From Candidatus Fluviicola riflensis (GTDB taxonomy: Bacteria; Bacteroidota; Bacteroidia; Flavobacteriales_D; Crocinitomicaceae), in the NCBI GenBank assembly GCA_002243285.1, contig CP022585.1, positions 620,001-684,000 of the forward strand: a stretch of 64,000 bases of DNA, written 5' to 3'. This document shows, piece after piece, positions 18,171-29,537 of the stretch (its first letter is position 1; each line of letters opens with the position of its first letter). The notes under the pieces are model-generated. The model did not search any database. It was given only the letters and a program-made list of their open reading frames with translations, and was not told the origin of the DNA. The position numbers and the translations under genes were made by a program.

Positions 18171-19112
18171 ATGAAGAAAAGATTACTCGCTCTATCAACA
18201 TTGATGTTTGCATCAGTAGGAGTATTTGGTCAACAAGATATGGCCTTAACGCACTTTTTCTACAACAAAATGTTGTTTAATCCAGGTGCTACCGGAATTG
18301 ACGAAGGGATTTGTGGATCGTTGCTTTACCGTAATCAATGGGATAAAGTAAGTGGTGCGCCAAATTCAGCGACGTTTAATGCTGAAGCCAATATTGAACG
18401 CTGGTTTCCTGCCGGTGTCGGTATTACGTTTGCGCATGATGCAATCGGTTTTAACCGCCAGAATAATTTCGCGCTAAACTACTCGCAGCACGTTACAACC
18501 AGTGTAGGTACTTTGGGTATCGGTGTGGGATTGGGCTTTATGAACTTCGGTTTGAATCCTACATGGGTCCCGCCAACAACAAATTTTGATCCTACCTTAC
18601 CTGCCAGTAGTTCTGCAACAGCATTTGACCTGAATGCGGGGCTTTACTGGAAAGGAACAACGCAGCCTTATTATATCGGTATTTCATCGACTCACTTATC
18701 TGCTCCGATTTTGGCGCAAACTTCCAGTTTGTTAGCTAGTCCTGCTGTAAATTACAATACGGCGCGTCACTATTACTTTATGGGAGGTTATGTTTTCGAA
18801 GAATTAGGTCCGGGTAATCTGGATATTCAGGCGTTAGTTCAGTCCGATTTGGTAAAAACGTCATTTAATTTGAACGCACGATACATTGTCAATAATCAAT
18901 TTTACGGAGGTTTAGGTTACCGTTCATCGGATGCTGTATCTGTTATGGCAGGATTTATTCCATGGCCTGGAGCAGCAATCAGCTACTCTTATGACCTTAC
19001 GTTGAACAAATTATCAAATGTATCGAGAGGTACGCATGAGGTTGTTGTGAAGTACTGTTACTACCTTCCACCGCCACCACGTACGGTATCAAATCACCCA
19101 AGATGGTTGTAA
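18171..19112 (+). CDS. porP: PorP/SprF-family T9SS outer-membrane protein
   Basis: A 313-residue beta-barrel protein. The start is placed at MKKRLLALSTLMF, which begins a signal peptide cut after VFGQ; the frame is open 126 bases further upstream but without signal-like sequence. It has the family hallmark HFFYNKMLFNPGATG and alternating beta strands to the end. PorP works with PorK/GldK and PorN/GldN in the T9SS outer-membrane complex, and in Porphyromonas porP also directly precedes porK. It lies 115 bases upstream of gldK, which has its own promoter. Confidence 0.92.
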   Translation: MKKRLLALSTLMFASVGVFGQQDMALTHFFYNKMLFNPGATGIDEGICGSLLYRNQWDKVSGAPNSATFNAEANIERWFPAGVGITFAHDAIGFNRQNNFALNYSQHVTTSVGTLGIGVGLGFMNFGLNPTWVPPTTNFDPTLPASSSATAFDLNAGLYWKGTTQPYYIGISSTHLSAPILAQTSSLLASPAVNYNTARHYYFMGGYVFEELGPGNLDIQALVQSDLVKTSFNLNARYIVNNQFYGGLGYRSSDAVSVMAGFIPWPGAAISYSYDLTLNKLSNVSRGTHEVVVKYCYYLPPPPRTVSNHPRWL

Positions 19113-19227: not shown

Positions 19228-20766
19228 ATGAAAAAACTGTTGTTAATCGGTTTAATTGGGACCTTCTTGGCTGCTTGTAGTTCGCGTAGCGGACACTTGA
19301 CAGGAGTACTAGGTCGACGCGTATATCAACCAGAGATTCCTCTCGGTATGGTATATATTCCATCGGGTTCTTACAATATGGGAGAGAACGATCAGGATGT
19401 TCCATTTTTGCACCAGACACGTGCGAAGACGGTATCCGTTCAGGCTTTCTATATGGACCAGACGGAAATCACCAACAATGAGTATCGTCAATTCGTTGAG
19501 TGGGTCAAAGATTCAATTGCACGTGAATTAATTTATTCAGGTGTGGAAGAAGATGATGATGCCGCGGATTTCATCAACTATGCCGACGATTATTTCGACG
19601 GAGTAGAGATGGTAGAGTTTGATCCTGCCAATCGTGATGAGAACCGTGCTCAGTTTTCGCTCAATTGGGATCGGAAGTTCTCTTACGAAGATGAAGAATA
19701 CCTTCCGTTGTTGGCAGATATGTATTATCCGCAGGCAGAACGTTTTTACAAGCGTCGTGATATCGACACACGTAAGTTGATCTTTAAGTACTATTGGATC
19801 GATTTCAGAGAAGCTGCCCGTCGTGGCCGTATCGATATTGTGCCAAATGGTTACGATAATCAAGGTAACAAAGTTGCCCAGGAACACCGTGAATTGAATA
19901 CGCCTCCACATCCGTTTACGGAAGAACCGCAAGGTCAGGATGCCGATTTCGGTTACTTCAATAAAAAAGGCCAGAACAATGCCATTCGTGGTCATGCAGA
20001 TCGTCAGCGTTTTATCATTGATGAGGCAATCCAGGTATTCCCGGATACATTGTGTTGGGTGCGTGACTTTACCTATTCATTCCACGATCCAATGACTAAT
20101 ATGTATTTCTGGCACCCTGCTTACGACAACTATCCGGTTGTTGGTATCACATGGGTTCAGGCAAAAGCATTCAGTGTTTGGAGAACACAATTGCTCAACA
20201 CATGGTTGGTTGCAATGGGTGATTTATTTGTAAATGATTTCCGTTTGCCTACAGAAGCAGAATGGGAAAGAGCAGCTCGTGGAGATTTGAATAACTCACC
20301 TTACCCTTGGGGAGGCCCATACATTCGTAACGAATCAGGTTGTTTCCTTGGGAACTTTAAGCCGATGAGAGGGCGTTATTTTGAAGATGGTGGTTTTCAC
20401 ACGGTAAAAGCATACTCTTATAACCCGAACGGTTGGGGACTTTACTGTATGGCAGGAAACGTGTCCGAATGGTGTGAAACTGCTTATGACGAATCAATGT
20501 ATGAATTCTCACATGACTTGAATACAGAATACCGTTATGACGCAATGGACTGGGATCCGCCTTCAATGAAACGTAAAGTTTTGCGCGGTGGTTCATGGAA
20601 AGACATCGGTTATTACTTGCAGACATCAACTCGTACCTACGAGTATCAGGATACAGCCAAATCGTACGTCGGGTTCCGAAATGTGATGACTCACTTGGGA
20701 CGTGGTGGACGTGAATTCTCTAAAGAGGGTGGCGAAGAAATTCGTAGCGATATCCAACTTCGCTAA
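19228..20766 (+). CDS. gldK: T9SS/gliding lipoprotein GldK (PorK)
   Basis: A 512-residue outer-membrane-associated lipoprotein. The lipobox LAAC places lipidation at C17. The rest is a formylglycine-generating-enzyme/sulfatase-modifying-like fold (VYIPSGSYNMGENDQ, FYMDQTEITNNEYRQF, FRLPTEAEWERAARG, MAGNVSEWC, VLRGGSWKD). In GldK this fold is structural: with GldN it builds the periplasmic ring of the type IX secretion machine. Cysteines are few and the enzyme active-site pair is not evident. It is the first gene of gldKLMN. Confidence 0.97.
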   Translation: MKKLLLIGLIGTFLAACSSRSGHLTGVLGRRVYQPEIPLGMVYIPSGSYNMGENDQDVPFLHQTRAKTVSVQAFYMDQTEITNNEYRQFVEWVKDSIARELIYSGVEEDDDAADFINYADDYFDGVEMVEFDPANRDENRAQFSLNWDRKFSYEDEEYLPLLADMYYPQAERFYKRRDIDTRKLIFKYYWIDFREAARRGRIDIVPNGYDNQGNKVAQEHRELNTPPHPFTEEPQGQDADFGYFNKKGQNNAIRGHADRQRFIIDEAIQVFPDTLCWVRDFTYSFHDPMTNMYFWHPAYDNYPVVGITWVQAKAFSVWRTQLLNTWLVAMGDLFVNDFRLPTEAEWERAARGDLNNSPYPWGGPYIRNESGCFLGNFKPMRGRYFEDGGFHTVKAYSYNPNGWGLYCMAGNVSEWCETAYDESMYEFSHDLNTEYRYDAMDWDPPSMKRKVLRGGSWKDIGYYLQTSTRTYEYQDTAKSYVGFRNVMTHLGRGGREFSKEGGEEIRSDIQLR

Positions 20767-23493: not shown

Positions 23494-24492
23494 ATGAAAC
23501 GTTTACTAATCTGCGCAATGGTTGCACTATCTGGAGTAGCCTTGGCACAACCGGAGATCAATGGTGGTCCTGTGAATGTTCCCTACGATGGGGTCGTTGA
23601 TGGGGTCTACATTACTGAGCATATTCCTACGAAGCGCATGATTCCTTATGAGTTTGTTCGCGAAGCGGATGTAACTTGGAGTAAGCGTGTGTGGCGTGTA
23701 ATCGACATGCGTGAGAAAATCAATCATCCGATCTATTTGCCGTTCGATTACTACGATCCGCAAAACAATTGGGTGCGTAACTCTTCACGCTGGTCACTTT
23801 GGACGATCATGAAACACCACATCCTTAACGGAGATTTGGACATGTTCTCGCCGGATAATCCCTACGATTATACCATGCGCGATGGCGATCAGTTCAAATA
23901 CCCGATCGTTCCTGAAGAAGGTAAAAGCTATTATACGGATTCAGTTTTCCGTGGAACAGCTTTCCAATACCTTGGGAAATTAGGTCCGCAGTCTACTACA
24001 CCTATCGCAAACGAATATGGTGAGGATTCAGTGATCTATTTGCCGGATGGAACAACAGAATACGTATATCCTCCACGTGATACTACCTGGATTCTGTCGA
24101 AAGACATCGTTCAGTACCGTATCAAGGAAGATTGGTTTTTCGATAAGGAACGTTCTGTATTGGATACTCGTATTTTGGGGATTGCTCCGGTAACTTACCT
24201 GAAAGACGATAACAACCAGATTTTGGGTCTACGTGAAACGTTTTGGTTATACTTCCCGCACTGTCGTTATATCTTCAATAACTACTTCGTTTACAATGAG
24301 CAAAACGACGCTCAATGGATGAGTTTTGATGACATGTTCTGGAAACGGCAATTCAGTAGTACAATCTACAAGGAAAGTAACGTTTTTGATCGTGAGATTG
24401 AGTCGTACCGTACAGGTGTTGATGCATTGATGGAATCGGAGAAAATTACCGAGGAAATCAGGTTGTTTGAACACGACGTATGGAACTTCTGA
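23494..24492 (+). CDS. gldN: T9SS/gliding ring protein GldN (PorN), first copy
   Basis: A 332-residue periplasmic protein with a Sec signal peptide (about 1-18, ending ALAQ). It carries the DUF-type GldN core (VREADVTWSKRVWRVIDMRE, PFDYYDPQNNW, FFDKERSVLDTRILGIAP, CRYIFNNYFVYNEQNDA). It forms the periplasmic ring with lipoprotein GldK and receives the GldM shaft. It is the last gene of gldKLMN and ends at a strong terminator. A second, closely similar gldN follows 141 bases downstream. Confidence 0.97.
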   Translation: MKRLLICAMVALSGVALAQPEINGGPVNVPYDGVVDGVYITEHIPTKRMIPYEFVREADVTWSKRVWRVIDMREKINHPIYLPFDYYDPQNNWVRNSSRWSLWTIMKHHILNGDLDMFSPDNPYDYTMRDGDQFKYPIVPEEGKSYYTDSVFRGTAFQYLGKLGPQSTTPIANEYGEDSVIYLPDGTTEYVYPPRDTTWILSKDIVQYRIKEDWFFDKERSVLDTRILGIAPVTYLKDDNNQILGLRETFWLYFPHCRYIFNNYFVYNEQNDAQWMSFDDMFWKRQFSSTIYKESNVFDREIESYRTGVDALMESEKITEEIRLFEHDVWNF

Positions 24493-24510
24493 TTTGACGA
24501 AAAATACTTG

Positions 24511-24545
24511 AAGCCCTTCTATAGCAATGTAGAAGGGCTTTTTTG
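24511..24545 (+). terminator. Intrinsic terminator after gldKLMN
   Basis: An 11-bp perfect stem (24511-24521 with 24530-24540, 8-base loop) is followed by TTTTG. It separates the canonical gld operon from the extra gldN. Confidence 0.9.
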
Positions 24546-24572
24546 TGTTCGGAACTTTGGGATTTACCCTTG
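24543..24572 (+). promoter_or_regulatory. Candidate promoter of the second gldN
   Basis: TTG inside the terminator T-run (24543-24545), 19-base spacer, then TACCCTTG (24565-24572), which matches TAnnTTTG at 7 of 8 positions. The second gldN starts 61 bases downstream. Confidence 0.4.
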
Positions 24573-24633: not shown

Positions 24634-25629
24634 ATGAAAAAAGCACTAACCATCGTTGCAGTGTCCCTGGCTGGGATCGCTGCTGCACAATGCACCATTA
24701 ATGTCGGTCCGGTGAATGTCCAACGGGCAGGAGTGATCGACGGAGTTTATCTGCCCGAAAACATCCCAACCAAACGATTGATTCCCTACGAATACGTTCG
24801 TGAAGCTGACGTAGTTTGGAGCAAACGGGTCTGGCGCGTGATCGACATGCGCGAAAAGATCAATCATCCACTGTATTTACCGTTCGATTATTACGATCCA
24901 CAGAACAACTGGATCAGCAATTGTACGCGCTGGTCACTTTGGACGATCCTGAAGTACAATGTCCTGCACGGAAGCCTGGATATGTTTTCACCGGATAATC
25001 CATACGATTATTCAATGCTGGATGGTGATCAATTTAAATATCCGATTGTTCCCGAAGAAGGAAAGAATTATTATACGGATTCGGCTTTTCGGCAAACAGC
25101 TTTTCAGTATCTGGGAAAGTTAGGTCCGCAGCCAACCGTTCCTTATCAGGATATGTATGGTGATGATTCCACGATTATAGTCAATGGAATTCCGGAGTTT
25201 GTCTATCCTCCACGTGATACAACTTGGATTATGTCGAAAGATATAGTGCAATATCGTTTAAAAGAAGACTGGTTTTTCGACAAGGAACGTTCTGTAATGG
25301 ATGTGCGCATTTTGGGCATTGCACCGGTAATTTACCAAACAGATGAGAATAACCAAATCCTGGGTTTGAGAGAAGTCTTCTGGCTTTATTTTCCGCATTG
25401 CAGATATGTGCTGAATAACTATTTCGTTTACAATGAACACAATGATGCGCAATGGATGAGTTTCGACGATTTGTTTTGGAAACGTAAATTCAACAGTATC
25501 GTTTACAAAGAAAGTAATGTCTTCGACCGAAACATAGAATCGTACCGTACCGGTGTTGATGCTTTGATGGAATCGGAGAAAATCACCGAAGAAATGCGAA
25601 CATTTGAAAGTGATGTCTGGAATTTTTGA
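24634..25629 (+). CDS. gldN: GldN paralogue, second copy (GldO-like position)
   Basis: A 331-residue periplasmic protein with a signal peptide ending AAAQ. It aligns end to end with the GldN encoded just upstream; by eye about three quarters of residues are identical, including the C-terminal YRTGVDALMESEKITEE block. Differences concentrate in the mature N-terminus and around residues 170-190. Flavobacterium johnsoniae also has a gldN paralogue (gldO) right after gldN, partly redundant with it; whether this copy is orthologous or a separate duplication cannot be told here. It has its own upstream terminator and candidate promoter, and a terminator after it. Confidence 0.95.
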   Translation: MKKALTIVAVSLAGIAAAQCTINVGPVNVQRAGVIDGVYLPENIPTKRLIPYEYVREADVVWSKRVWRVIDMREKINHPLYLPFDYYDPQNNWISNCTRWSLWTILKYNVLHGSLDMFSPDNPYDYSMLDGDQFKYPIVPEEGKNYYTDSAFRQTAFQYLGKLGPQPTVPYQDMYGDDSTIIVNGIPEFVYPPRDTTWIMSKDIVQYRLKEDWFFDKERSVMDVRILGIAPVIYQTDENNQILGLREVFWLYFPHCRYVLNNYFVYNEHNDAQWMSFDDLFWKRKFNSIVYKESNVFDRNIESYRTGVDALMESEKITEEMRTFESDVWNF

Positions 25630-25651
25630 TACTTATTCCAGCTTTTTCAAG

Positions 25652-25685
25652 AATCCCTTTCCGCTTCGGCAGAGAGGGATTTTTC
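25652..25685 (+). terminator. Intrinsic terminator between second gldN and second gldM
   Basis: The outer stem AATCCCT/AGGGATT (25652-25658 with 25675-25681) encloses a small inner CCG/CGG hairpin and is followed by TTTTCG. It implies partial or full transcriptional separation of the two paralogues. Confidence 0.7.
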
Positions 25686-25760
25686 GTTTAAATAGAAGTC
25701 AATCAGTTACTTTCTTTTTTCTCTGCATTCTGCTGCTATAAACCCAATAAATCAACAATC

Positions 25761-27500
25761 ATGGCAGGAGGAAAAGAAACACCCAGACAAAAGATGATCG
25801 GAATGATGTATCTTGTATTAACCGCGCTACTGGCGTTGAATGTATCTAAAACCATTTTGGATGCTTTCGTTGCCATCGAAGAAAACATTCAAATCGCCAA
25901 CGAAAATGAATGGCAGCGCGGCGATGAAAAACTATCGGAACTAAAAGCAAGCGCTCAGGATGCAACTGTTCCCGAAACACAGGCGAAAGCGAAGAAATTG
26001 CTCAAAACAATTGAACAGATTGATCGCATGACAGCTGAGCGAATTCGTGAAATAGATGCGCTGAAAATCGAAATTCTGAATGCGTGCGATGAAGACACCA
26101 AATCGTTCGGTTCCAAAGAAAGTATTCTTGTGACGAAAAGCCAGGAAGATTCCTTGAAACCAATTCGCATGAGATTGGAACAGGTGCAAAACAAGGAAGC
26201 ATATGATGAACCGATGCGGATTCTGATCGGTGAAGACATTACCCGCCCAACTGGAAAAGGAATGACTTTGTGGAATAATTACAACAACTTCCGTGGTCAA
26301 CTGACAGAAATGGTAGCCAATTCCAATCCTTCCGATGGAGGGAAGTATTTTTTCAAAGCACCTAAGATCAATAGCTTTAAAGATCAAAAGGATTTGTGGG
26401 CTCAAATCACGAAATCGATCAAAGCGTCGAATGTGCACCCGGATGACCAGGAAGCGATCAAAAAAATCTATGCAGCGCTTACTAAGCCCGAACGTGTTGA
26501 AATGCAGGACGTCAAAAATGTTCACTGGGTCGGAAAAACGTTTGATCACGCGCCTTCAGTAGCTGTTTTGGCATCATTGTCTTCGTTGCAGAAAGAAATC
26601 CTCACCGCTAGAGCCGATGCTGTTTCCCTGATTCGTCAGCGTGTGGGCGGCGGCGAATATTCGTTTACCAGAATCATTCCACTGGCTTATGGCCCTGAGA
26701 TCGCAAACGCAGGTGAAGAAGTGGAAATCCAGGTACTCATGGCAGCTTATGATGGGGACAGGAAACCGACGATTACCGTAAATGGTGGCACATTGCGTGA
26801 AACCCGAGAAGGAAAGGGATACGTTACCGCACGTGGATCGGGAAGCGAAATACATTTGTCGGGAACGATCACGATTACCAACAAATCAGGAATTCCGAAA
26901 ACATTACCCTGGGAGAAAAACATCAAGATCATGAAACCACAGGGAACTGTTTCGCTACCTGATATGAACGTTTTGTACCGAACTTATGATAATAAGGTAC
27001 AAGGCGTTGCTTCAGGCTACGATCAAACCATTCTGACTGGAGCAGGAGTGAACCTGATCAAGTCGGGGAACCAATATATTGGACGTGTGAATACAACCGG
27101 CCGAACGGCAACGATTAAGATCTCGGGTAAAAATAATGCGACAGGGAAAACGGAATCGTTGGGAACGTATACGTATCGGGTGATGAATTTACCGAAACCG
27201 TCGCTGTACCTCGGATCGATTGAAAATGGTGCGACAGCTGACAAACCGAGCATTAATTCATCAAGAATGTTAAATGTTCGTTATCCGGAAGGAATTGCAT
27301 TGGAGGCAAAGTATGAAATTGCTTCCTGGGAAATCCAAGTAGGCAATTCACCAAGATCTGAAAGAGGAACAGGGAAAGTATTGACTGAAGATGCATTACG
27401 TTTATTAAAACAGGCACGTCCGAATGACAATATCTCGATTACGGCGAAATTTAAAGGGCCAAATAACGGATTTATCGGAAGCACGATCAAAGTACGCTGA
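25761..27500 (+). CDS. gldM: GldM paralogue, second copy
   Basis: A 579-residue protein with the same plan as the upstream GldM. The first ~45 residues are almost identical, including the single transmembrane helix, and HWVGKTFDHAPSVAVLASLSS and IMKPQGTVSLPDMNVLYRTY are conserved. The periplasmic body has diverged much more than the GldN pair, with roughly half the residues identical by eye. The near-identical membrane helix should still fit the single GldL pentamer, so this protein could replace or mix with the first GldM. Its gene order relative to the second gldN is the reverse of the main operon. No promoter is obvious in the 75 bases after the preceding terminator. Confidence 0.95.
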   Translation: MAGGKETPRQKMIGMMYLVLTALLALNVSKTILDAFVAIEENIQIANENEWQRGDEKLSELKASAQDATVPETQAKAKKLLKTIEQIDRMTAERIREIDALKIEILNACDEDTKSFGSKESILVTKSQEDSLKPIRMRLEQVQNKEAYDEPMRILIGEDITRPTGKGMTLWNNYNNFRGQLTEMVANSNPSDGGKYFFKAPKINSFKDQKDLWAQITKSIKASNVHPDDQEAIKKIYAALTKPERVEMQDVKNVHWVGKTFDHAPSVAVLASLSSLQKEILTARADAVSLIRQRVGGGEYSFTRIIPLAYGPEIANAGEEVEIQVLMAAYDGDRKPTITVNGGTLRETREGKGYVTARGSGSEIHLSGTITITNKSGIPKTLPWEKNIKIMKPQGTVSLPDMNVLYRTYDNKVQGVASGYDQTILTGAGVNLIKSGNQYIGRVNTTGRTATIKISGKNNATGKTESLGTYTYRVMNLPKPSLYLGSIENGATADKPSINSSRMLNVRYPEGIALEAKYEIASWEIQVGNSPRSERGTGKVLTEDALRLLKQARPNDNISITAKFKGPNNGFIGSTIKVR

Positions 27501-27504
27501 TCAT

Positions 27505-27562
27505 ATTGTAAAATGAAAAGTAGGGATGAGTCGGGATTCGCCTCTACTTTTCATTTTACAAT
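27505..27562. terminator. Long AT-rich hairpin after second gldM
   Basis: Two perfect 19-base arms (27505-27523 and 27544-27562, sharing AAAATGAAAAGTAG) are separated by 20 bases. It starts 5 bases past the gldM stop, so a terminator role is likely, though the stem is long and AT-rich and there is no clean T-run. Confidence 0.6.
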
Positions 27563-27576
27563 TTCAATTAACTGCG

Positions 27577-27587: not shown

Positions 27588-29537
27588 ATGCTTGTAATGG
27601 AAAAACTGGGAATTCACTTCCCACAAGGGTATTTGTTTAACGATTGTTCGGCGCAGGTCAACACAGGAGATCGTGTCGGTTTGGTGGGGAAAAACGGCGC
27701 AGGAAAGTCAACGCTGATGCGTCTGATTGCTCAATGGGAAGTTCCTACGAATGGCCAGATACACCGTCAACGCGGACTCGAAGTCGGATTTCTGACGCAA
27801 GATATCGAAATTGACACAAGCTCAACCGTATTTAATTATCTCTATTATTCCAACGAAGAATTGAACGGTTTGCGTTCAAGTATCGATTCCATTAATCATG
27901 ATTTGGTGAGCAGGACCGATTACGAGGAAGAAAGTTACCTGAATTTATTGGATGAACTGAATGCCGCCAACGACCGTTTCGGCTTGCTGGAAGGTTATCA
28001 ATGGGAAGAAAAAATCGCGGCAACGCTCACCGGACTTGGCTTTGGACTGGATGACTTCGAAAAACCGTTGGAATCGTTTTCCGGTGGATGGAAAATGCGC
28101 GCCGAATTAGCTAAAATTCTGGTGAATCAACCCAATCTATTGTTGCTCGATGAGCCGACGAATCACCTGGATATCCTTTCGATCCAATGGCTGGAAAATT
28201 ACCTTTCGCGCTTTGAAGGAGCGGTGATTGTGATTTCGCACGACCGGTTGTTTTTGGATAATGTGACCAACAGAACGTGGGAAATTTCCCAGGGAAAAAT
28301 TCTCGATTTCCCCTTTGCTTATTCACGCTACAAGGAACAGCGTGCCGAAGATATGGAACGCCTGACTGACGCGAAAAAACAACAGGATAAAGACATTAAA
28401 CACACGCAGGAACTGATCGATAAATTCCGTGCGAAAAAGAATAAGGCAGCTTTTGCTCAATCGTTGATCAAAAAACTCGAGCGTACCGAACGCATCGAGA
28501 TTGACAACGATATGGTGGCGCGAATGAATATCTTCTTCCCGCTCAATGTTCAGCCCGGAAAATGGGTAATTGAAATGGACAGTTTGGGGAAAGCGTATGA
28601 ACAAAAACGCTTGTTTCGTGATATTTCCCTGACAGTTGGTCGTGGTGAAAAAATTGCTTTGCTCGGGCCGAATGGTGTGGGTAAATCTACTTTGTTCAAA
28701 TGTTTGATGAAGGAGATTGATCACGACGGAAAAGTAGAATTAGGACACAATGTGAAAATCACTTATTTCGCGCAGGATCAGGCCGAACGATTGGATAAAA
28801 ATAAAACGGTATACGAAACTGTTGACGATGTCGCTGTGGGTGATGTGCGCAAAGATTTGCGTTCTATCCTTGGTGCTTTCCTGTTTTCAGGTGAAGATGT
28901 CGATAAAAAAGTAGCGGTACTTTCCGGAGGTGAACGCACACGACTGGCTTTGTGTCAGCTGTTATTGAGTCCGTCGAATGTGTTGATCCTGGATGAACCA
29001 ACAAATCACCTGGATATTCAAAGCAAGCAGGTGTTGAAAACGGCGTTGCAGAAATACGAAGGAACGTTTTTGATCGTATCGCACGACCGCGAATTTTTAG
29101 ATGGTTTGACCAATCGAATCTGGGATATTGAAAACCAGACCTTGAAAATTCACCATTTCAGCGTGCAGGAATATCTGGTACGTAAAATGGAACAACAATC
29201 CGGGAAAACTCCTGCGAAGCTGGCTCCAAAACCGGTTGAAAAGATTGTTGTGGAAATGGCACAACCTGAAACAGCTATCTCAAACGATGATCGCAAAGAA
29301 TTGAAACGCCAGCGCACGCAACTGACCAATAAAATCAAGCAGCTGGAAGAGCAAATCAGTCGCTTTGAAAAGGAAGTAGAGCAATTAAACGACCAGATGA
29401 GCACCATGGATTTTGCCGATGTGGAAGCAACAGCTCCAGTATTAAAAGCTTTCGAACTGGCGAAATCGAACCTCGACCAAAGCACAGAAGCCTGGATGGA
29501 AGCCAGTGAAAACCTTGAAACCATACCTGTACTATGA
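27588..29537 (+). CDS. ABC-F family ATPase (ribosome-associated)
   Basis: A 649-residue soluble protein with two ABC cassettes and no membrane segments. The start at MLVMEKLGIHF is chosen because homology begins there; an upstream in-frame start lies inside the gldM terminator hairpin. Cassette 1 has Walker A GKNGAGKST, signature FSGGW and DEPTNHLD. The linker is long and charged. Cassette 2 has GPNGVGKST, LSGGE and a second DEPTNHLD. The C-terminus (about 560-640) is a coiled coil like that of Uup/YheS-type proteins. ABC-F proteins act on ribosomes in translation quality control or antibiotic protection; the subtype is undetermined. It overlaps the next gene by four bases. Confidence 0.93.
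   Translation: MLVMEKLGIHFPQGYLFNDCSAQVNTGDRVGLVGKNGAGKSTLMRLIAQWEVPTNGQIHRQRGLEVGFLTQDIEIDTSSTVFNYLYYSNEELNGLRSSIDSINHDLVSRTDYEEESYLNLLDELNAANDRFGLLEGYQWEEKIAATLTGLGFGLDDFEKPLESFSGGWKMRAELAKILVNQPNLLLLDEPTNHLDILSIQWLENYLSRFEGAVIVISHDRLFLDNVTNRTWEISQGKILDFPFAYSRYKEQRAEDMERLTDAKKQQDKDIKHTQELIDKFRAKKNKAAFAQSLIKKLERTERIEIDNDMVARMNIFFPLNVQPGKWVIEMDSLGKAYEQKRLFRDISLTVGRGEKIALLGPNGVGKSTLFKCLMKEIDHDGKVELGHNVKITYFAQDQAERLDKNKTVYETVDDVAVGDVRKDLRSILGAFLFSGEDVDKKVAVLSGGERTRLALCQLLLSPSNVLILDEPTNHLDIQSKQVLKTALQKYEGTFLIVSHDREFLDGLTNRIWDIENQTLKIHHFSVQEYLVRKMEQQSGKTPAKLAPKPVEKIVVEMAQPETAISNDDRKELKRQRTQLTNKIKQLEEQISRFEKEVEQLNDQMSTMDFADVEATAPVLKAFELAKSNLDQSTEAWMEASENLETIPVL

What the first reader, a model, noticed from the sequence alone, without database searches (positions are those of the whole stretch)
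24634..27500. Second gldN-gldM pair beside a single gldK and gldL
Seen: after a normal gldKLMN operon come a second full-length gldN (about three quarters identical by eye) and a second gldM (about half identical), but no second gldK or gldL. Known: GldL/GldM form the rotary motor and GldK/GldN the ring of the T9SS; Flavobacterium johnsoniae has a partly redundant gldN paralogue, gldO, in the same place. A paired extra gldM is not something I recall as standard. Inference: the nearly identical transmembrane helix of the two GldM copies suggests both fit the one GldL, so the cell may build alternative shafts and rings, with the periplasmic body specialised.
Basis: partly seen in the sequence, partly recalled or inferred. 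Interest (0 to 1): 0.75.

Follow-up and report, generated by a model that had tools for sequence, protein, structure and literature searches.

The report
One secretion motor, two drive shafts
These water bacteria keep a second, apparently separately controlled copy of the drive shaft and of a ring part of their protein-secretion motor beside a single motor barrel, so one motor may be able to run with exchangeable shafts, which I found no report of anyone testing.

Summary
The window (Fluviicola, Crocinitomicaceae) carries gldK-gldL-gldM1-gldN1, then a full-length gldN2 (78% identical to N1) and gldM2 (50% to M1). The complete genome has one GldL and one GldK over cut-off. It is no strain quirk: at least 43 of 155 family genomes (at least 90% complete; 11 genera) hold two full-length GldM, and all 43 have one GldL over cut-off. 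In a phylum sample, 100 of 104 genomes with a GldM match show one.

Terminator-like hairpins follow gldN1 in 18 of 18 gaps examined and gldN2 in 16 of 18, none lies in K-L or L-M1 gaps; weaker codon bias suggests lower expression. (2) Both second copies are under purifying selection. (3) The first periplasmic domain (D1) has two old types. Either can be a congener's only full-length GldM, while D2-D4 follow other histories, so copies probably recombine. (4) gldN2 was re-made repeatedly from gldN1.

Most likely: alternative, conditionally made shafts and ring subunits for one GldL motor. A fixed M2-N2 unit is weakly supported. Function is untested.

The parts
18174..19112 (+). PorP/SprF-family outer-membrane protein upstream of gldK
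   Evidence: TIGR03519, E 7e-56
19228..20766 (+). gldK, only copy over cut-off in the genome
   Evidence: TIGR03525 557 bits
20831..21643 (+). gldL, the only GldL match of the genome
   Evidence: TIGR03513 248 bits
21706..23472 (+). gldM1 (588 aa), alpha-type D1 domain
   Evidence: TIGR03517 207 bits; D1 tree
23494..24492 (+). gldN1 (332 aa), slow-evolving copy
   Evidence: TIGR03523 167 bits; tree
24510..24541 (+). terminator-like hairpin after gldN1; ends the gldKLMN1 unit
   Evidence: 14 pairs plus T tract; fold of 24493-24560 z -5.05; found again by my script; 18 of 18 homologous gaps
24634..25629 (+). gldN2 (331 aa), second GldN
   Evidence: TIGR03523 171 bits; 78% to gldN1; dN/dS 0.03-0.05
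25651..25682 (+). terminator-like hairpin after gldN2
   Evidence: my script, -17.4 kcal/mol; fold of 25630-25700 z -3.63; not flagged by the standard scan; 16 of 18 homologous gaps
25761..27500 (+). gldM2 (579 aa), second GldM, beta-type D1 domain
   Evidence: TIGR03517 217 bits; model pLDDT 89.6, best PDB matches PorM/GldM; dN/dS 0.06
27505..27562 (+). long hairpin after gldM2
   Evidence: fold of 27501-27575 z -7.42; its inner part 27517-27550 passes my script but not the standard scan; 18 of 25 homologous gaps
27588..29537 (+). ABC-F ATPase gene that often bounds the locus in relatives; neighbour, not part of the system
   Evidence: gene orders

Best explanation
[quoted passage not shown] They are made from their own transcription units, probably at lower or conditional levels, and work with the single GldL barrel and single GldK. 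Shown by sequence: two intact, selected copies; one GldL; conserved terminator-like breaks; two old D1 types, each of which occurs as the only full-length GldM in some congener; conflicting histories of GldM domains. Inferred: that the breaks stop transcription, that GldM2 enters the GldL pentamer as a homodimer and builds an alternative trans-envelope arm, and that the mix of shafts and rings is changed, perhaps to serve the large load of secreted proteins in these genomes.
For: One GldL over cut-off in 43 of 43 two-GldM genomes. GldM residues 1-30: median 100% identity between within-genome copies (the 34 pairs are listed, residues 1-42 range 76-100%). Window against G112: M2 dN/dS 0.056-0.064, N2 0.033-0.046, M1 0.05, N1 0.006. 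Terminator-like hairpins in gaps of 10-400 nt: K-L 0/33, L-M1 0/34, M1-N1 2/31, N1-N2 18/18, N2-M2 16/18, N1-M2 7/7; scrambled gaps give 3.4, 2.8 and 0.8 for the last three. Codon bias weaker in N2 than N1 in 12 of 14 chosen loci and in M2 than M1 in 13 of 14; dS higher in N2 and M2 than in M1 and N1 where it could be computed. The only full-length GldM is alpha-type in G030 and G046, beta-type in G118, all Fluviicola and 99% complete. T9SS C-terminal-domain candidates: median 257 in 15 two-GldM genomes, 179 in 15 one-GldM genomes.
Against: No expression, secretion or motility data. No promoter signal above chance before gldN2 or gldM2 over the family, so read-through from the operon is possible. 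Copies come and go: at least 12 changes for M2 and 13 for N2 on an 88-locus tree, so they are dispensable in many lineages. Second gldM copies are frame-broken in two incomplete drafts, L049 and L050. The cargo correlation uses first-look candidate counts and hand-picked genomes, is not corrected for kinship (9 of 15 two-copy genomes are Fluviicola) and shrinks to 58 against 51 per Mb (p 0.03). Counter-examples are G075 (261) and G082 (225) with one full GldM. The 14 codon-bias loci share descent and are not independent.
Confidence: 0.5

Rival explanations
1. Partial redundancy of the GldN/GldO kind: the second copies are back-ups or dosage copies with no distinct job, kept by occasional benefit.
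For: F. johnsoniae gldN and gldO are partly redundant (stated in PMC9127263, passage). N2 is repeatedly re-made from N1 (one clade rejected, p 2e-46). Gains or losses are frequent. Paralogue divergence profile is close to the orthologue profile.
Against: M1 and M2 differ at half their residues, and the two D1 types are found on both sides of splits between several genera, with M2 dN/dS near 0.06 in the window's pair. I would not expect pure back-ups to be kept so long while so divergent.
Confidence: 0.25
2. Mixed assemblies: GldM1 and GldM2 form a heterodimer inside one GldL pentamer, and GldN1 and GldN2 share one ring.
For: The GldM N-terminal helix is the same in both. GldM works as a dimer in a GldL pentamer (5:2, PMC10202324, passage). 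Strand-swapped dimer contacts lie in D2-D3 (PMC5790014, passage), where copies have median identities of 56 and 59%. In F. johnsoniae the GldM periplasmic domain contacts both GldN and GldO in two-hybrid tests (PMC8986121, passage).
Against: Terminator-like breaks and unequal codon bias do not fit a fixed 1:1 partner. Either type occurs alone in congeners. Residues 43-75, just after the membrane helix, are only 13% identical in the window pair.
Confidence: 0.13
3. Reservoir for variation: the second copies matter mainly as donors, so that GldM domains can be exchanged by gene conversion.
For: D1 and D2-D4 give conflicting trees. A sharp identity switch inside GldM of G124 (L049) and a milder one in L042. 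N copies group by lineage.
Against: Purifying selection on N2 and M2 as proteins and their own transcription breaks point to use as genes. L049 comes from a draft genome of 83% completeness and could be an assembly chimera.
Confidence: 0.07
4. Relaxed, decaying duplicates.
For: gldN2 is broken by a stop in G031 and cut down to a stump with a stop in G091. Second gldM copies are frame-broken in the drafts L049 and L050, where the ABC-F gene is broken too, so sequencing errors are possible. N2 evolves faster than N1.
Against: dN/dS 0.03-0.06 for the window's N2 and M2; elsewhere 0.042 for N2 (1 pair of 6 computable) and 0.025-0.052 for M2 (2 of 6). No stop lies in the matched span of any GldM match listed (150 rows listed).
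Confidence: 0.05

Closest known systems
GldO of Flavobacterium johnsoniae (GldN paralogue next to gldN)
   Same: An extra GldN gene directly beside gldN (PMC9127263, passage).
   Different: No extra gldM is mentioned beside it in the passages I saw. Here N2 genes do not form one clade even within the family. GldO itself was not fetched or placed in a tree.
GldLM / PorLM 5:2 rotary motor of the T9SS
   Same: Same families, same operon order, same N-terminal helix; GldM2 model matches PorM 7cmg and GldM 6ey4.
   Different: The passages I saw describe one GldM per GldL; here two GldM share one GldL. Leone et al. 2018 (PMC5790014, passage) mention in passing 'other extra orthologues of porM' in F. 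johnsoniae, citing a paper I did not see.
Motors with several inner subunits for one barrel (MotA with several MotB)
   Same: PMC9389320 (section 8 read in full) notes more MotB than MotA and suggests specialised variants assembling on demand, untested.
   Different: That paper reports no such excess for GldLM. The present case would be an example in the GldLM branch.

Membership tests
GldM/PorM (TIGR03517), for gldM2 | Score over the curated cut-off | tested here: met
   216.6 bits, cut-off 180
GldM/PorM (TIGR03517), for gldM2 | N-terminal membrane helix with the invariant residues of the family | tested here: met
   Residues 1-30 identical to GldM1; R9, Q10, K11, Y17, N27 and others invariant in the 60 rows of A5
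GldM/PorM (TIGR03517), for gldM2 | Helical D1 plus three beta domains | tested here: met
   AlphaFold2 model pLDDT 89.6, pTM 0.57, helices then strands; Foldseek best hits 7cmg and 6ey4, E to 1e-21, but single-chain TM-scores only about 0.3-0.4, I think from bending between domains
GldM/PorM (TIGR03517), for gldM2 | C-terminal D4 domain by sequence (PF12080) | tested here: inconclusive
   Not matched in GldM2 at 1e-3; GldM1 matches below the gathering score; strands are predicted there
GldM/PorM (TIGR03517), for gldM2 | Works with GldL to drive secretion | not testable with these tools
   Needs deletion and complementation
GldN/PorN (TIGR03523), for gldN2 | Score over the curated cut-off | tested here: met
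   171.2 bits, cut-off 85.9; PF19841 E 2.4e-64
GldO | GldN paralogue adjacent to gldN | tested here: met
GldO | Common descent with F. johnsoniae gldO | not tested
   GldO sequence not fetched; polyphyly of N2 inside the family makes it unlikely

The most novel reading that the evidence does not exclude
A single ion-driven motor barrel (GldL) is served by two interchangeable, separately regulated drive shafts, so the cell re-programs one rotary secretion machine by swapping its axle and ring subunit; the shafts keep two ancient membrane-proximal (D1) types and trade their outer domains by recombination.
Probability: 0.35. Interest if true: 0.8.

Novelty: new variant of a known kind. Interest (0 to 1): 0.6.

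Why it matters
The T9SS motor descriptions I saw (passages) treat GldM as one gene product. A family in which one GldL faces two divergent GldM, with each D1 type able to be the only one, gives natural experiments on what the shaft must do, on GldL-GldM and GldM-GldN recognition, and on whether secretion and surface movement can be split. It would also be a case in the GldLM branch of inner-subunit exchange, proposed for MotA/MotB but reported there as absent for GldLM (PMC9389320). Annotation by the standard models hides it, because both copies get the same family name.

Tried and rejected
Recent gene conversion as the reason for the identical GldM N-terminus: rejected, 19 of 41 identical residues use different codons. 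M2 and N2 as a co-evolving pair: no correlation of D4 divergence with N1/N2 divergence (rho -0.12, p 0.59, n=22); D1 and D2 even correlate negatively (rho -0.44, p 0.04; rho -0.57, p 0.006). Joint gain and loss is only suggestive: 24 loci with both, 51 with neither, 10 with M2 only, 3 with N2 only (88 of 104 loci had enough sequence); 11 independent pairs, N2 going the same way in 5.5 and the other way in 0.3 on average, median p 0.06. Special divergence of any GldM segment between copies: medians differ by at most 4 points from those of M1 orthologues. Promoters for gldN2 and gldM2 by the Bacteroidota consensus (recalled, not from a call): score 9 of 10 or more in 1 of 18 and 0 of 18 gaps, expected 1.4 and 2.0; the one hit is the window's own gldN2 gap, so a promoter there is possible. 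Genes inserted between the copies gave no common theme.

Limits of the counts. The 43 two-GldM genomes are a lower bound, because one search lists matches only down to about 1e-181. The phylum survey uses one GldM domain model, which matches this family weakly, so second copies there can be missed. Loci were scored for M2 and N2 at the locus only; in the 88-locus tree I set M2 as present by hand in L062, L187 and L066 (second gldM far off or on another contig), while L113, scored as absent, turned out to have a second gldM on another contig. Gaps outside 10-400 nt were not scanned for hairpins: 4 of 22 N1-N2, 4 of 22 N2-M2, 5 of 12 N1-M2, 3 of 28 M2-ABCF and 3 of 34 M1-N1. The scrambling moves blocks of two bases. 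Trees dropped rows: 24 of 157 GldM rows, 36 of 143 GldN rows, 35 of 157 (recounted); one search left out six loci and added 13 chosen one-GldN loci. All trees are quick searches with SH-aLRT only. In one search, five of six N2 and four of six M2 dN/dS pairs could not be computed.
Full report
WHAT IS THERE. The window lies in a complete 4.55 Mb genome (G000:C1:620001-684000). Its genus is Fluviicola: the congener genomes G112 and G096 have contigs of the same length as the records named Fluviicola sp. (JARWZO010000030) and F. chungangensis (NZ_VLPL01000003). The + strand reads topA, a formimidoylglutamase-like gene (both names recalled from the look of the proteins), PorP/SprF, gldK, gldL, gldM1, gldN1, gldN2, gldM2, an ABC-F ATPase, clpP (name recalled). 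All six T9SS genes gldK to gldM2 score over their curated cut-offs. N1/N2 are 78% and M1/M2 50% identical. Genome-wide there is one GldL match and one GldK over the cut-off.

HOW COMMON. In the order, 245 genomes of at least 90% completeness were searched with a GldM profile made from family members. Of the 155 in the window's family (my count of the rows), at least 43 have two full-length GldM matches, in 11 genera. All 43 have one GldL over the cut-off; their further GldL matches are weak fragments. In a phylum sample of 392 genomes, 104 match the GldM N-terminal domain and 100 of these show one copy. The exceptions are the window genome, G262 of the same order (second frame 417 aa), G679 (439 aa) and G596 (230 aa). 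Two GldM in one locus also occur in two other families of the order, in G231 and G293. In others a second GldM lies elsewhere in the genome or on another contig: the seven f11 genomes tested, G204 and G237. On the tree two of the f11 ones (the two fetched) and that of G237 stand apart as an older branch. Of the 43, 25 have two full-length GldN by my reading of the rows and 18 have one; gldN2 is broken in G031 and a stump in G091. None of the 10 one-GldM genomes in that call has two full-length GldN, but the set was hand-picked. Three Fluviicola genomes lack the pair: G030, G046, G118.

GENE ORDER AND TRANSCRIPTION. Over the loci with a gldL (120 of 140 locus entries) the usual orders are L-M-N (64), L-M-N-N-M (29), L-M-N-M (10) and L-M-N-N (4), duplicate and contig-cut loci included. 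A hairpin followed by a T tract was sought in gaps of 10-400 nt of two-gldM loci: K-L 0 of 33, L-M1 0 of 34, M1-N1 2 of 31, N1-N2 18 of 18, N2-M2 16 of 18, N1-M2 7 of 7, M2-ABCF 18 of 25. The same gaps scrambled give 3.4, 2.8, 0.8 and 3.0 for the last four. In the window, the gaps after N1, N2 and M2 fold with z -5.05, -3.63 and -7.42, against 0.53 and 0.62 for K-L and L-M1. My script finds a hairpin plus T tract in all three and none in K-L, L-M1 or M1-N1; the standard scan flags only the first. So gldKLMN1, gldN2 and gldM2 look like three transcription units. Promoters could not be shown. Effective codon number is higher (weaker bias) in N2 than N1 in 12 of 14 chosen loci and in M2 than M1 in 13 of 14. 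Synonymous divergence from G112 is 1.0-1.4 for N2 and 1.0-1.1 for M2, against 0.22 for N1 and 0.44-0.45 for M1, and 0.7-1.0 for the ABC-F gene. Both fit lower expression of the second copies than of the operon; this is inference.

SELECTION. Window against G112: dN/dS is K 0.014, L 0.02-0.03, M1 0.05, N1 0.006 (one method), N2 0.03-0.05, M2 0.06. Second copies evolve faster but are held. The first 42 residues of the two GldM differ at one place, yet 19 of the 41 identical residues have different codons: selection on the protein, not recent copying. Residues 1-30 have a median identity of 100% between copies (34 pairs). A model of GldM2 (pLDDT 89.6, pTM 0.57) shows the long first helix, a helical D1 and beta domains, and its best PDB matches are PorM and GldM, at low single-chain TM-scores.

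HISTORY OF GldM. On D1 alone (residues 43-305 of M1; 122 rows, 262 columns) the copies of the clade that includes Fluviicola split into two types: alpha (47 rows, SH-aLRT 95) and beta (28 rows, 98); on 46 rows the beta set has 92. The window's M1 is alpha and M2 beta. Of nine Fluviicola loci with two intact copies, six (F. chungangensis among them) have alpha in both slots; the window and G112 have alpha then beta; L042 (probably F. taffensis) has beta then alpha. L052, L053 and L118 of other groups have beta in both. Crocinitomix relatives keep a separate M1 and M2 split on full-length GldM. D2-D4 disagree with D1: on 46 rows they reject the beta set as one clade (AU p 0.003), and D1 rejects the five window, G112 and G124 copies as one clade (p 0.0001), although D2-D4 put those together with weak support (42). 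Windows along L049_M1 are nearer to beta copies up to about residue 375 and 76-90% identical to the window's alpha M1 beyond. L049 is a draft genome. The groups in these tests were named after seeing trees, so p values are optimistic.

EACH TYPE CAN STAND ALONE. G030 and G046 have one GldM, alpha; G118 has one full-length GldM, beta, plus three proteins of about 220 aa that match only the D3-D4 end. Outside the genus, the genomes of L114, L120 and L106 (completeness not told) have one GldM match, beta. L113's genome proved to have a second GldM and is not counted. This is the best evidence that a beta GldM like the window's M2 is a competent motor subunit.

HISTORY OF GldN. N2 copies do not form one clade (26 N2 of 65 rows; AU p 2e-46). 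In many lineages N2 sits beside its own lineage's N1 on a longer branch; in Fluviicola proper the N2 of eight loci form their own clade. Either repeated duplication at one spot or gene conversion explains this; I cannot tell which.

ARE M2 AND N2 A PAIR? Presence is associated over 88 loci (24 both, 51 neither, 10 M2 only, 3 N2 only), but on the tree the evidence is only suggestive (median p 0.06). PorM-D4 alone binds PorN in two-hybrid tests (PMC5790014, passage), yet D4 divergence does not follow GldN divergence.

CARGO LOAD. A review states at least 230 potential T9SS effectors for F. taffensis (PMC10202324, passage). In 30 chosen genomes the first look for the T9SS C-terminal domain gives a median of 257 candidates with two GldM (n=15) and 179 with one (n=15), p 1e-4 without correction for kinship, and 58 against 51 per Mb, p 0.03. 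In Fluviicola: 238-292 in nine two-GldM genomes against 105, 118 and 226 in three with one. G075 (261) and G082 (225) go against it. This is a lead, not proof.

MECHANISM. Most likely, GldM2 forms homodimers in the same GldL pentamer and reaches the ring, giving a second, conditionally made arm; GldN2 is an alternative ring subunit. Shown by sequence: genes, selection, one GldL, terminator-like breaks, either D1 type alone in congeners. Inferred: assembly, regulation, use. Rivals: GldO-like redundancy, heterodimers, a recombination reservoir, decay.

LITERATURE. Searches for gldM with gldN, gldO, paralog, Fluviicola, two copies and duplicat, GldLM and paralog, porM and gene duplication, Crocinitomicaceae and type IX secretion, gldN, gldO, redundant, pentamer, gene conversion, and gldM1, gldM2, second gldM, two gldM (first 10 of 18 papers listed) showed me no paper on a second gldM beside gldKLMN. 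Most hits I saw as listings only. I opened passages of PMC10202324, PMC9127263, PMC8986121, PMC5790014, PMC5445135, PMC5395568, PMC12239597, PMC11354047 and PMC5714932 and section 8 of PMC9389320 (other passages). Only open-licence papers are held. One sentence in PMC5790014 mentions extra porM orthologues in F. johnsoniae.

Noticed in passing
L059:8915-10036 (G000 2.237 Mb, - strand); also G118:C101 and C44, G689:C40, G127:C30, G144:C30, G075:C14: Proteins without the GldM membrane helix that match only the D3-D4 end of GldM: 373 aa with a signal-like N-terminus (by eye) in the window's genome (PF21602 just below its gathering score; TIGR03517 E 2.7e-9), about 200-225 aa in others, three in G118. 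Possibly soluble GldM-tip proteins.
   Followed up: partly
L060:8321-10173 (G000 2.408 Mb, - strand): A GldN-like protein with a MORN-like N-terminal part (below gathering score) beside a GldK-like (FGE-sulfatase fold) gene, with no GldL or GldM match in the 18.9 kb fetched: a divergent second ring-like pair.
   Followed up: partly
L056:8996-9834: Two tandem 139-aa secreted-looking proteins between gldN2 and gldM2 in G023; by eye like the GldM end domain, but no Pfam match.
   Followed up: partly
L161, L163, L165: T9SS loci of more distant relatives with two to four GldN-like genes in a row and one GldM.
   Followed up: no
L054:11134-13584 and L046:9032-10528: Genes inserted between the copies: by eye an FG-GAP-like, cargo-like protein (816 aa) in the g18 group, and aminotransferase-like frames on the other strand in F. 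chungangensis.
   Followed up: partly
L189 (G004): Two M-N pairs about 8 kb apart with many small genes between, instead of M-N-N-M.
   Followed up: no
L175 (G263), L184 (G246), L179 (G237): Unlinked second GldM of other families of the order, standing apart in the tree with no gldL beside them.
   Followed up: no
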